A stretch of 64,000 bases of DNA, taken from assembly GCA_020912385.1 (NCBI GenBank), contig CP087215.1:2232001-2296000 (forward strand), in the 5' to 3' direction. How positions within the stretch are numbered: position 1 is the stretch's first letter; every line of letters begins with the position of its first letter. Under the pieces are notes generated by a model. It ran no database searches. It worked only from the letters and a program-made list of their open reading frames with translations, and was not told the DNA's origin. The position numbers and the translations under genes were made by a program. Shown here one piece after another: positions 26,636 to 30,087 of the stretch. Origin of the DNA: Neofusicoccum parvum (lineage: Eukaryota > Ascomycota > Dothideomycetes > Botryosphaeriales > Botryosphaeriaceae).

Positions 26636-28674
26636 TCATTTACCCCCCTTCTGCCTCACATCTTTCCAGCCCATCAGATACGATACAAATAAGCCGGTTA
26701 ACGCTGTTGCTGTTGCCAAATAAAACGTTCGGCTGACACTCTCGCTGTAAGCCTTCAGCAAATCCGGCAGCTCCTCAGGGGACACTATGTTCCTCATGGC
26801 CGTCGAGCCAGCAGCAATGATGGCGCTTGCATCCACGGTTGGTGCATACTCTCTAATGGTCGTCTTCAAACTGTTTGTGAAGATGGTCTGGGCAACGACG
26901 GTCATGAGCGCGCCACCAAAGTTTTGGCAGAAGACGAAAGTGGACATAGCCGTGGGAATTTGAACAGGCTGCAGAGTGTTCTGGACGGCAACCATTGGCT
27001 ATACACATGAGGTGTTAACATAATGAACAACATAATATCTGCTGATAGCTTACCATTGGCAGGGCAAGCCCCCGACCTGTACCTGATAGAAGCTGGAAAC
27101 CAACCAACTGGGCCATAGTGGTCGATGGCGACACGAGAGTCAAGAGTCCGGACCCGATGGAGTTGAAGGCATTACCTGCGAGGATGAATGGCAGGTAGTA
27201 CCCGAACCTCTGCACTGGTGAACTGTCAACGGCATTCTCAACACTGGACTAGTCATGGAGTACTTACCAAGCCTTCCGACTAGTAGCGTAAACACGACTT
27301 GTGTCAATATTGTAGGCAGGAAATGAATGCCACTTTGCAAAGGCGTGTCCGCACGGACGCCTTGGAAATATAGCGGGAGGTAATAGGCAGTGACGAATAC
27401 CGTTCCTGAAAGCAAAAGTATGGTGCAGCAACTGGCCCACACGATCCTCACCCGCAACATAGAAAACGGAATCATGGCGGAATCGCCCTTGTGATAGTTC
27501 CAAACACAGAAGATGATGAACATCACAGCCGCACCGCAGAAAAGACCGATGACCTCTGGGCTGTTCCAAGGATGGCGGTTGCCTGCAAACTCCAGCGCGA
27601 GAAACATCTGGATAGCGGCAGGTGCGAAAAGAGCAAACCCGATGAGGTCAAATTCCGACAGAGGCTTGCGAAGGACTACGCGCCAGTCCGGTTTGGGTAT
27701 GTGGTCGGGGATGTTAACCCACAATAAAACAAGACCGAGAAGACCGCCGATTGGGAGGTTGATATAGAAGCCTATTGAACATCAGCAAAAGGAGTCTGAG
27801 TGCGGAACGGTTCCCTTACACCAGCGCCATGATGCATATTCAGTGATAGCTCCGCCAATAAGAGGGCCTGCAGCTGCACCCAGATTTCCAACTACAATGA
27901 TCAGCCAGCTGTGGAGGGTAGCTACTAGCAGAGTTTACTTACACGCCATCATGAATCCCAGCGAGCCTTAATGTTGTCAGCGGTCAGCGGCTGAAATTTC
28001 CTTTTGAAAAAGCACTTACCTGGTCGGCGCCGGGGCTCAACGCAGGAGTTAAGAATTGTAAATCCGCCATTCATCAGGCCGGCTCCGCCAATACCAGCCA
28101 CAGCTCGGCCAAGAATGAGCATCATAGATGACTGTGCTGCACCACAAAGTGCAGAGCCGAGCTCAAAAATGGTGAAGAACCCAAGGAAGAGAATCTGCGG
28201 AGGATCAGAAAGCCGTTCCTGCAAGTTCGATGATGAGTATACCTTTGAATTGAGCCGAGCGTACATTTTTCCGGTCAAAGGCTGCAGAGAAGCGCTGGTA
28301 CTCAGATCAGAATGATGACGAACCTTTGGGAGAACGGGTATTACCAAACAAGCTGATACGCACTGCCGTACCAGCCAACATCAAGGAGAGAGTTGAAGTC
28401 ATCGGTAATGTATGGAATAGCCTGAAGAAGAATGTAAGCCAGGCCGTGGCATCTCCTTCAGGAAGCTTACCGTTGAGAGAATAGACATGTCGAGCATCAT
28501 CAAGAAGTAGACTACGGTGAAAGAGCCAATGATTGCCATAAGCTTTAGGCCGTCAAGGTACTCCTTCTCCGGCTCCTTTAGTGGTGTTTCTGTTTTGACT
28601 GAAACATCAGTAGATTCTTCGTCGCTGCCAGCGAAGACTGCAGCCTCCTTGCTGAGCTCCGCCTCATTGCTCAT
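26636..28674 (-). CDS. MFS multidrug/toxin efflux transporter (14-TM type), in frame with upstream monooxygenase
   Basis: The first family-like methionine is at 28674 (MSNEAELSKEAAVFAGSDEE). An acidic cytosolic segment follows, then TM1 (LKLMAIIGSFTVVYFLMMLD) and STAIPYITDDFNSLLDVGWY, typical of fungal DHA-type exporters. Motif C-like LGRAVAGIGGAGLMNG is present. The frame can be followed through about six short introns (first 28422-28470) to TGA 26636, ending MGWKDVRQKGGK. Such pumps export fungal secondary metabolites and give self-protection. No stop codon separates this frame from the FAD monooxygenase ending just upstream, and there is no intergenic spacer, so the two may be made as one protein. 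Exact splicing around 28200-28350 is uncertain. Confidence 0.88.
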
Positions 28675-30087
28675 CTCGGGGTGCAATACCTTGACATCAG
28701 GACCAGCAGGCCCAAGATGCACATCCATCTTTTTCTCAAACTGATCCAAAGCATCTCCAGCCATGGCGTCTGTGTCGTAGTGCCAGATCTTGTGCGAACG
28801 GGATTCAATTTCATGTGCAATCTTCTTGTAATCGCGGCCGCAATGCGGGTTTTGCCACTCGTACACCTCACCGATAGTACGGCTACTATCTACAAGCCAC
28901 TGTGAACGTTCGTAGCGCACATCATTGTAGACCTCGAGAGCAGCTCGGAGACTAGCGGTCTTGTTTGTCTGACAGTGATGCGCAGCAGCTTCTAGCAGTA
29001 CAGCGAGAGCAAGGCAGTCCTCAATACCGCAACCCGCGCCGGCACCATGATGGGGTGTTGAGGCGTGGGCAGCATCGCCTGCAAGGCAAAGGAGGCCAGA
29101 TACATATGTTGGAACAGGGTAGTCGTGCGTGTCGAACACGGCCCACTTATCGAGTTGTTCCGGCAGCAGGTCCATGATAGTTCTCACTACGGGGCTGAAG
29201 GTTGCGAAGCCATGGATAGCCTCGCTCTTGGTTGCTGGTGCAATGAGCTTGCCATCCGGAGCGTGCCAGTCGTCGGGATCTGTGACGAAGGCCACGACAT
29301 TGAGAAGTGTTCCGAGAGCAACGGGAAACGTCAGGGCGTGCGCGTTGGGCCCGAGATGCATGAGACGGGTTGAGGTTCTCCATTCGCCAAGTGCAGCCCT
29401 GGCCTTTTCCATCGGGACCAGGCCGCGGATGGCGTACTTGTGGCTGTAAGATGGGTTGGAGGCGGGGTGGCTTTCGCCCAGCATGATCTGGCGCAGCTTC
29501 GACCGAATGCCGTCGCACCCGACAACTGGCTAAGTCAGTGCGATGTTCCTGGAGGTGGTGAAGAGTCTATTCCACTTACCAACATCTGCCTCTGCACTCG
29601 TGCCATCACGAAACAGAAGAACGGTTTTCTGGTTGTCGCCGCCCTCGAGCACCGAAACAAGCTCTTTCTCGAACTCGACCTTTTCCTCCGGTACCAGGCA
29701 GACCAGTTCTTCCAAGAAGTCGGGACGGCGGCAGCCTTCAAATCCCCTTTCCCCGAGATAGAGTCTGAGAATTGTCTCCTCGTGGGTGTCGTCGGGGTTT
29801 GCCCTGTCCCAGTTGTAACCATCGACGTAGTTGAACCAGTCTTCGGTGTTCTGGGTTGCAACTTTTCTGAAGGCAGCGTGAATCCGAGGATCCAAAGTCT
29901 TCATGGCACGCTCTGCATTGGGAGTGAACCCAATGCCGGCACCAATCTCACGGAAGCTGCGCGCTCGCTCGTAGATCGTGAAGTTGACATTGCGGCGGAG
30001 CAGACCGATGGCCAGAGTTAGTCCGGTGATGCCACCACCAACGATGGCAACAGTCACCGGCCCTTCATGTTGTGGCATTGACGCCAT
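28675..30087 (-). CDS. FAD-dependent monooxygenase (salicylate-hydroxylase/azaphilone type), frame continues into MFS transporter
   Basis: ATG 30087 (MASMPQHEGPVTVAIVGGGI) gives the N-terminal GxGxxG FAD motif (VGGGITGLTLAIGLLRR). One intron of about 55 nt (about 29523-29577) restores VGCDGIRSKLRQIMLG, the DG motif. The GD motif is LCLAGDAAHASTPHHGAGAG. About 450 residues to the junction is the full usual length. Relatives carry out hydroxylating dearomatisation of aryl aldehydes, the step that creates the azaphilone pyranoquinone. After the normal C-terminal region (HKIWHYDTDAMAGDALDQFE) the frame runs on without a stop into the transporter's first residues at 28674. It is divergent from the acyltransferase, with a shared 552-bp promoter. 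Confidence 0.9.

What the first reader, a model, noticed from the sequence alone, without database searches (positions are those of the whole stretch)
26636..30087. FAD monooxygenase and MFS exporter lie in one continuous reading frame
The monooxygenase exon reads through its usual C-terminal region (HYDTDAMAGDALDQFE) directly into MSNEAELSKEA and the first membrane helix of a complete 14-TM-type pump, with no stop and no spacer. Both halves are full length and keep their motifs. A two-gene model would need a promoter and a terminator in zero bases. If translated as one protein, an azaphilone-forming dearomatising enzyme would be tethered to the exporter of its reactive product. I know of no described enzyme-pump fusion of this kind, though I could not search for one.
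Basis: partly seen in the sequence, partly recalled or inferred. Interest (0 to 1): 0.75.

Follow-up and report, generated by a model that had tools for sequence, protein, structure and literature searches.

The report
Enzyme fused to its efflux pump
In this fungus (Neofusicoccum parvum) and some relatives, a flavin enzyme of a pigment-type gene cluster and a membrane efflux pump that are separate proteins in other fungi appear to be encoded as one joined protein, which could hand a reactive product straight to the pump; no transcript or protein has been examined here.

Summary
On the minus strand one exon (29525-28471) runs without a stop from a TropB/AzaH-type FAD monooxygenase into the first membrane helix of an MFS pump. 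There is a spacer: 20 residues between "DQFE" and "MSNEAEL", about 60 between enzyme fold and pump. The spliced model has 10 exons, 996 residues. It is not a local accident: six of the 120 listed hits match 99-100% of the fused query, and partial entries carry the same junction, together nine other named species. Linkers vary in length and stay in frame; the window's internal pump Met occurs only in the N. parvum entries. Trees of each half put the fused proteins in one strongly supported group, so the fusion probably arose once. An AlphaFold model of the Polyplosphaeria protein shows two folded domains and a low-confidence linker. NR-PKS, HR-PKS and acyltransferase genes lie beside it. Against: a Diplodia seriata entry inside the group lacks the pump, two N. 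parvum entries end soon after helix 1, a second Met near the enzyme's end is shared by 8 of 15 sequences, and no RNA or protein evidence was available. Coupling of catalysis to export is inference.

The parts
26636..30087 (-). Fusion gene, predicted 10 exons, 996 aa: exons 30087-29580, 29525-28471, 28421-28345, 28294-28243, 28194-28020, 27966-27943, 27891-27820, 27771-27268, 27214-27054, 26998-26636 (stop included)
   Evidence: Spliced (landmarks); intron sizes and ends; the translation aligns end to end with P0001
28726..30087 (-). FAD monooxygenase half, residues 1-436 of the model (TropB/SorC/AfoD/AzaH type; interrupted by intron 29579-29526)
   Evidence: Pfam PF01494 on the exon-2 frame (38.8 bits, cut-off 22); PDB sequence matches SorC 402 bits, TropB 398, AfoD 361
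28546..28725 (-). Linker between the enzyme fold and the helix-1 region (residues 437-496, 60 residues, holding one Met, M454; another Met, M436, lies just before it)
   Evidence: TropB alignment ends at residue 436; the corresponding linker of the P0001 model (441-479) has pLDDT below 50; linkers listed. Boundaries are mine
28672..28674 (-). Internal ATG (M454, MSNEAEL), the start that the 543-aa separate-pump reading would use
   Evidence: Met at this aligned column only in the window, P0121 and P0122, 3 of 15 sequences
28599..28689 (-). Hypothetical 91-nt intron (GTATTG...ACTGAT...TTTCAG) that would end the enzyme alone as ...DVKSKQKHH*
   Evidence: Enumeration of GT-AG pairs in the junction zone; unproven, no equivalent looked for at DNA level elsewhere
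26636..28545 (-). MFS (DHA2/TRI12-like) efflux pump half, residues 497-996
   Evidence: TRI12 hit on one exon, 24.2 bits, cut-off 23.2; best stand-alone hit is the Pleopsidium MFS P0010; PDB sequence matches EmrB and EfpA
30520..32007 (+). Trichothecene 3-O-acetyltransferase-like acyltransferase, divergent neighbour
   Evidence: PF22664 102.8 bits, PF02458 57.2 bits
32588..40327 (-). Non-reducing PKS: SAT, KS, AT, ACP, C-methyltransferase and reductive-release type (NAD_binding_4) domains
   Evidence: Pfam scan, one frame of 2579 aa
41142..48467 (+). Highly reducing PKS: KS, AT, DH, C-methyltransferase, ER-like and KR domains, long frame of 2441 aa
   Evidence: Pfam scan
23684..24928 (+). Zinc-type alcohol dehydrogenase / enoyl reductase-like gene, possible cluster member
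   Evidence: PF08240 67.1 bits and PF00107 33.9 bits
22042..22830 (+). FSH1 serine hydrolase; a second one lies at 52471-53262 (+); possible cluster members
   Evidence: PF03959, 102.4 bits and 105.1 bits
50685..51347 (-). Fungal transcription-factor domain exon, possible cluster regulator
   Evidence: PF04082, 57.4 bits

Best explanation
This is a genuine fusion gene. It encodes one polypeptide: an AzaH/TropB-type FAD monooxygenase, then a flexible linker of about 60 residues, then an MFS (DHA2-like) efflux pump. It probably arose once, in an ancestor of these Dothideomycetes, by joining two genes that other fungi keep separate. Likely mechanism: the N-terminus of MFS pumps lies in the cytosol, so the enzyme sits on the cytosolic face of whichever membrane holds the pump. 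There it hydroxylates and dearomatises the PKS-derived aromatic intermediate, and the pump removes the reactive product or a later derivative. Shown here: the frame, its recurrence in relatives, the grouping of both halves, the two folds (model of a relative), the cluster. Inferred: translation as one protein, membrane side (from MFS knowledge, recalled), the product, and substrate hand-over.
For: Open junction exon. Six of the 120 listed hits of the fused query cover 99-100% of it, P0001-P0006 (951-988 aa, 62-74% identity); three more listed hits are partial fused entries, P0007, P0008 and P0009. Of 15 junction sequences aligned (window, P0121, P0122, P0124, P0125, P0236, P0001-P0009), none has a stop, linker lengths differ, and the Met that would start the window's 543-aa pump is in 3 of 15, the N. 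parvum ones. P0236 looks like the same single exon and ends just past the same 'ILST' splice site. Enzyme-half tree: 12 fused rows + D. seriata form one group, 100/99. Pump-half tree: 8 fused rows form one group, 100/100. AlphaFold model of P0001: mean pLDDT 86.8; segments below 50 are the two ends and linker 441-479. Foldseek hits SorC/TropB/AfoD for one half and EfpA/EmrB for the other. In the window's genome the best-scoring matches to both halves are this locus; the next by E-value are 34% (enzyme) and 36% (pump) identical, with short stretches up to 51%.
Against: No transcript or protein data. The full-length fused relatives are database gene predictions; I saw no DNA of theirs. Diplodia seriata P0123 (438 aa), inside the group, ends after the enzyme. 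Two N. parvum entries (P0121, 546 aa; P0122, 501 aa) carry the junction but end soon after helix 1 with ...LAG[VI]HDGV; P0122 also lacks the GDAAHA region. A Met near the enzyme's end (window M436) is shared by 8 of 15 sequences and one inside the enzyme's last helix (M424) by 15 of 15; the latter is also in 10 of 10 stand-alone enzymes looked at, so it belongs to the enzyme, but neither is excluded as a start. A possible 91-nt intron could end the enzyme alone. pTM of the model is only 0.57, so the placement of the two domains is not determined.
Confidence: 0.77

Rival explanations
1. Both a fused protein and a free enzyme are made: alternative splicing in the linker (for example the 91-nt GTATTG...TTTCAG candidate at 28689-28599) ends some messages after the monooxygenase, so that only part of the enzyme is membrane-tethered.
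For: The candidate intron has a branch-like ACTGAT 13 nt from its end and gives a stop after six further codons. D. seriata is annotated as enzyme only.
Against: Its donor GTATTG is weaker than the eight GTAAG/GTAAT donors of the nine introns in my model (the ninth is GTATAC), and it is 91 nt long against 48-55 nt. Relatives' linkers are often shorter there and differ in sequence.
Confidence: 0.15
2. Two genes: the pump is translated from its own message starting at an internal ATG, with a promoter inside the enzyme's coding region, and the enzyme message ends through a splice or a 3' end that creates a stop.
For: The window has a Met (M454) giving a 543-aa pump of ordinary length, and stand-alone pumps of similar length exist. 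A Met near the enzyme's end (M436) is shared by 8 of 15 junction sequences.
Against: M454 is in 3 of 15 sequences and M436 is missing in 7 of 15, among them Macrophomina P0124 and Polyplosphaeria P0001. No enzyme stop in frame in any of the 15. No entry named as Botryosphaeriaceae stood as a separate pump among the 120 listed of 4790 hits of the pump search.
Confidence: 0.06
3. Assembly or annotation artefact: two neighbouring genes are joined by a sequence error or by gene callers.
For: Gene callers do join neighbours: other long MFS hits (P0058 with ankyrin domains, P0067, P0078) may be such chimaeras; I did not check them.
Against: The window is raw DNA with an open frame, two other N. parvum entries carry the same junction (P0121, P0122), and so do other species and two entries without organism name, P0125 and P0236. 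A sequencing error would not recur in this way.
Confidence: 0.02

Closest known systems
TropB / AzaH / SorC / AfoD class A flavin monooxygenases
   Same: Sequence (361-402 bits over residues 1-436) and fold (Foldseek 40-44% identity for the P0001 model). Arg at the TropB R206 position (R203 here) and Phe at position 239 (F236 here), as PMC10789314 reports for AzaH (passages).
   Different: The PDB ones are stand-alone proteins of 440-447 aa; this one continues into a pump. TropB has Tyr at position 239.
DHA2-type MFS drug exporters (EmrB, EfpA) and fungal TRI12/ToxA-like pumps
   Same: Fold match of the P0001 model to EfpA 8ufe (TM 0.82 by target) and EmrB 8zal (0.80); PF07690 161.6 bits for P0001.
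   Different: An enzyme is fused at the N-terminus. The TIGR00711 score of P0001 (171.2 bits) is below its curated cut-off of 230.2.
hfaza1C (transporter) and hfaza1D (FAD monooxygenase) of the Hypoxylon fragiforme azaphilone cluster
   Same: Hfaza1C falls in the 16-row group (100/99) that holds the fused pumps; cluster with NR-PKS, FAD-MO, acyltransferase, transporter (PMC7898651, passages).
   Different: Two separate genes there; that they are neighbours is my inference from the lettering.
LplT-Aas fusion proteins of some bacteria
   Same: An MFS transporter and the enzyme of the same pathway apparently in one ORF (PMC11416262, passages).
   Different: Unrelated enzyme (acyltransferase), pump first and enzyme second, a lysophospholipid flippase, and bacterial; the paper says the fused ones are uncharacterised.

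Membership tests
TropB/AzaH-type FAD monooxygenase | Whole-length similarity to characterised members | tested here: met
   SorC, TropB, AfoD at E 3e-119 to 9e-107 within residues 1-436
TropB/AzaH-type FAD monooxygenase | Active-site Arg (TropB R206, SorC Arg201) | tested here: met
   R203 aligned with R206; the PDB R206Q variant marks the place; importance from PMC11934079 (passages)
TropB/AzaH-type FAD monooxygenase | Residue 239: Tyr in TropB, Phe in AzaH and in S-selective members | tested here: inconclusive
   Phe here (F236). Like AzaH by this residue, but PMC10789314 gives AzaH a separate stereo-control mechanism, so F239 does not settle stereochemistry (passages)
TropB/AzaH-type FAD monooxygenase | Hydroxylative dearomatisation activity | not testable with these tools
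   Needs an enzyme assay
DHA2-type MFS exporter | MFS domain above curated cut-off | tested here: met
   P0001 PF07690 161.6 bits against 33.4, tested on the relative; the window exons gave TRI12 24.2 bits against 23.2
DHA2-type MFS exporter | TIGR00711 EmrB subfamily cut-off | tested here: not met
   P0001 171.2 bits against 230.2; so 'DHA2-like', not filed as a member of that bacterial subfamily
DHA2-type MFS exporter | 14 membrane helices | tested here: inconclusive
   P0001 model, residues 485-975: 13 helices of 18+ residues, one of them 41 long, and one of 14
Azaphilone gene cluster (group B of PMC8403587) | Two PKSs, an FAD monooxygenase and an acyltransferase together | tested here: met
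   NR-PKS with C-MeT and reductive release, HR-PKS, FMO, acyltransferase; definition from passages of PMC8403587
Azaphilone gene cluster (group B of PMC8403587) | FAD-dependent oxidoreductase in the cluster | tested here: inconclusive
   FAD_binding_4 exon at 8811-9350, beyond a retroelement, about 17 kb from the end of the fusion gene
Azaphilone gene cluster (group B of PMC8403587) | Makes an azaphilone | not testable with these tools
   No metabolite data

The most novel reading that the evidence does not exclude
A Dothideomycete lineage has evolved a single-chain 'make-and-pump' machine: a dearomatising flavoenzyme tethered to its exporter, so that a reactive azaphilone core (or its immediate derivative) is formed at the mouth of the pump and leaves before it can react with cellular amines. 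Catalysis and export would be coupled by covalent proximity.
Probability: 0.35. Interest if true: 0.8.

Novelty: new variant of a known kind. Interest (0 to 1): 0.6.

Why it matters
How fungi keep reactive secondary metabolites away from their own cytosol is, to my knowledge, largely open. A recurring fusion gives a direct, testable link between one biosynthetic step and one pump: separating the halves in a laboratory host should show whether tethering matters. By the gene-fusion (Rosetta stone) argument it also predicts that the separate azaphilone monooxygenase and transporter of other fungi act together. The architecture offers a natural template for joining enzymes to exporters in pigment production.

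Tried and rejected
Assembly-error idea: rejected because other N. parvum entries and other species carry the junction. Viral-type 2A self-cleavage: no NPGP or PGP in 13 relatives, no NPGP in the window protein. Second close copy in the genome: none among the scored candidates. A lead that the same genome has a 1239-aa frame with two MFS domains (table, C10:335340) was not reproduced in the DNA and was dropped. Ascochitine cluster as home of the Ascochyta fused gene: its listed transporter is a separate 517-aa protein (PMC6763771, passages), so no link was made.

Literature: ten searches were made. Those bear on the fusion; their listings show no report of a monooxygenase-MFS fusion (one search returned no paper). 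I saw listings with titles and starts of abstracts, except for six papers of which I read passages (PMC7898651, PMC8403587, PMC6763771, PMC11934079, PMC10789314, PMC11416262), so a mention inside another listed paper would have been missed. The library lacks most subscription papers.

Limits of the counts: searches list 120 of 1018, 816 and 4790 hits. For the trees I chose 33 and 28 rows by hand; P0121 and P0122 were left out of both as near-copies, P0009 too, and P0008, P0124, P0125 and P0236 out of the pump tree because little or no pump is in them. In the pump tree four rows (P0020, P0037, P0069, P0246) went in untrimmed because my motif did not match them. The grouping of the eight stand-alone pumps next to the fused ones has only 81/81 support. 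P0236 was missed by the script and P0006/P0009 lack helix 1 in their predictions; one search includes all three.

Full report
Check of the observation. The minus strand between 30087 and 26636 was read in all frames. A 361-residue frame, 29484-28399, holds the C-terminal part of an FAD monooxygenase, a linker and the first membrane helix of an MFS pump without a stop. I spliced ten exons and obtained 996 residues. The nine introns are 48-55 nt long and start with GT; eight end in CAG or TAG and one in AAG.

Organism. The enzyme half matches a Neofusicoccum parvum entry, P0121, at 100% (rounded; one residue differs by eye) and P0122 of strain UCRNP2, which lacks an internal stretch, at 90%. The window therefore comes from N. 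parvum or a very close relative.

Recurrence. A search with the fused protein gave 1018 hits, of which 120 were listed. P0001-P0006 cover 99-100% of it: Polyplosphaeria fusca (74%, 988 aa), Ascochyta lentis, Pyrenophora teres, Bipolaris zeicola, Curvularia kusanoi (64% each) and P. tritici-repentis (62%). P0007 (A. clinopodiicola), P0008 (Pleomassaria siparia) and P0009 (a partial P. tritici-repentis entry) also span the junction but are shorter. The listing gives 57 member sequences for the clusters P0001-P0008 (1, 2, 7, 31, 1, 9, 5, 1). The enzyme-half search added Macrophomina phaseolina P0124 and P0125 and P0236 without organism name, whose frames cross the junction and end near the same splice site after 'ILST'. 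In one search, twelve junctions measure 58-89 residues between two motifs. In one search, fifteen junction sequences were aligned: none has a stop; the Met that would start the window's 543-aa pump (M454) is in 3 of 15, the N. parvum ones; a Met near the enzyme's end (M436) is in 8 of 15; a Met in the enzyme's last helix (M424) is in 15 of 15 and also in 10 of 10 stand-alone enzymes looked at. So one start codon usable for a separate pump in all species could only be the one inside the enzyme.

Origin. In the enzyme-half tree (33 hand-picked rows) the twelve fused rows and D. seriata P0123 form one group with 100/99 support; D. seriata, annotated without a pump, pairs with Macrophomina at 96/87. 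In the pump-half tree (28 rows) the eight fused rows form one group with 100/100 support. Together with Hfaza1C, the transporter of the Hypoxylon fragiforme azaphilone cluster, and Pleopsidium, Xanthoria and other stand-alone pumps they form a 16-row group with 100/99. In Pleopsidium, Xanthoria, Pleurostoma and Cryphonectria, separate enzyme and pump entries show the same longest-contig length, which suggests, without proving, that the unfused genes are linked. The simplest history is one fusion of clustered genes, with a later split in Diplodia or an annotation gap there.

Structure and function. AlphaFold on P0001 with a 40-row alignment gave mean pLDDT 86.8; segments below 50 are 1-3, 441-479 (linker) and 984-988, and pTM is 0.57. 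Foldseek matched the first half to SorC, TropB and AfoD and the second to EfpA and EmrB. The window enzyme keeps the Arg at TropB R206 and has Phe at 239; AzaH also has Phe there according to PMC10789314 (passages). Pfam on the neighbours shows an NR-PKS with methyltransferase and reductive-release type domains, an HR-PKS, a TRI-like acyltransferase, two FSH1 hydrolases, a zinc alcohol dehydrogenase and a transcription-factor domain. [quoted passage not shown] The fit is good, but no product is known, and I scanned only the longer frames of the window.

Mechanism. Shown: the frame, its recurrence, the grouping, the two folds in a relative's model, and the cluster. From general knowledge of MFS proteins (recalled): the N-terminus is cytosolic, so the enzyme would sit on the cytosolic membrane face. 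Inferred: the reactive product is handed to the pump. Tethering could instead serve only stoichiometry or localisation.

Contrary results. Two N. parvum entries end soon after helix 1 through a different predicted splice; if those are backed by RNA, the pump half might not be made in this species. D. seriata lacks the pump in annotation. A 91-nt intron candidate (28689-28599) would end the enzyme alone. M436 is shared by 8 of 15. None of this can be settled without RNA.

Comparison. Both halves belong to known kinds; the joined architecture was not seen in the listings of the searches named under Tried and rejected, although public databases already hold the proteins under names such as 'MFS general substrate transporter' or 'MFS-1 multi-domain protein'. 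The nearest precedent that I found is LplT-Aas (PMC11416262, passages). I rate it a new variant of a known kind.

Noticed in passing
11644-15543 (-): Remains of a LINE-type retroelement: reverse transcriptase + RNase H frame (11644-13827) and an endonuclease frame (14800-15543), lying between the PKS cluster side and an FAD_binding_4 oxidoreductase exon at 8811-9353.
   Followed up: no
55817-57496 (+): UDP-glycosyltransferase-like frame of 559 aa with a macrolide-glycosyltransferase-like C-terminal part; possibly at the edge of the cluster.
   Followed up: no
19680-21545 (+): SPT23/MGA2-type DNA-binding and TIG domains in two consecutive frames, possibly a housekeeping gene at the cluster's border.
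   Followed up: no
database entries P0121 and P0122 against window 28371-27966: Two N. parvum entries go from just after helix 1 to a frame ending LAG[VI]HDGV, which looks like a mis-predicted splice that hides the pump half of the fusion in public annotation.
   Followed up: partly
58233-60135 (-): Frames with a pro-kumamolisin activation domain and a weak subtilase-family match (20.7 bits, cut-off 21.8), probably one S53-type peptidase gene.
   Followed up: no
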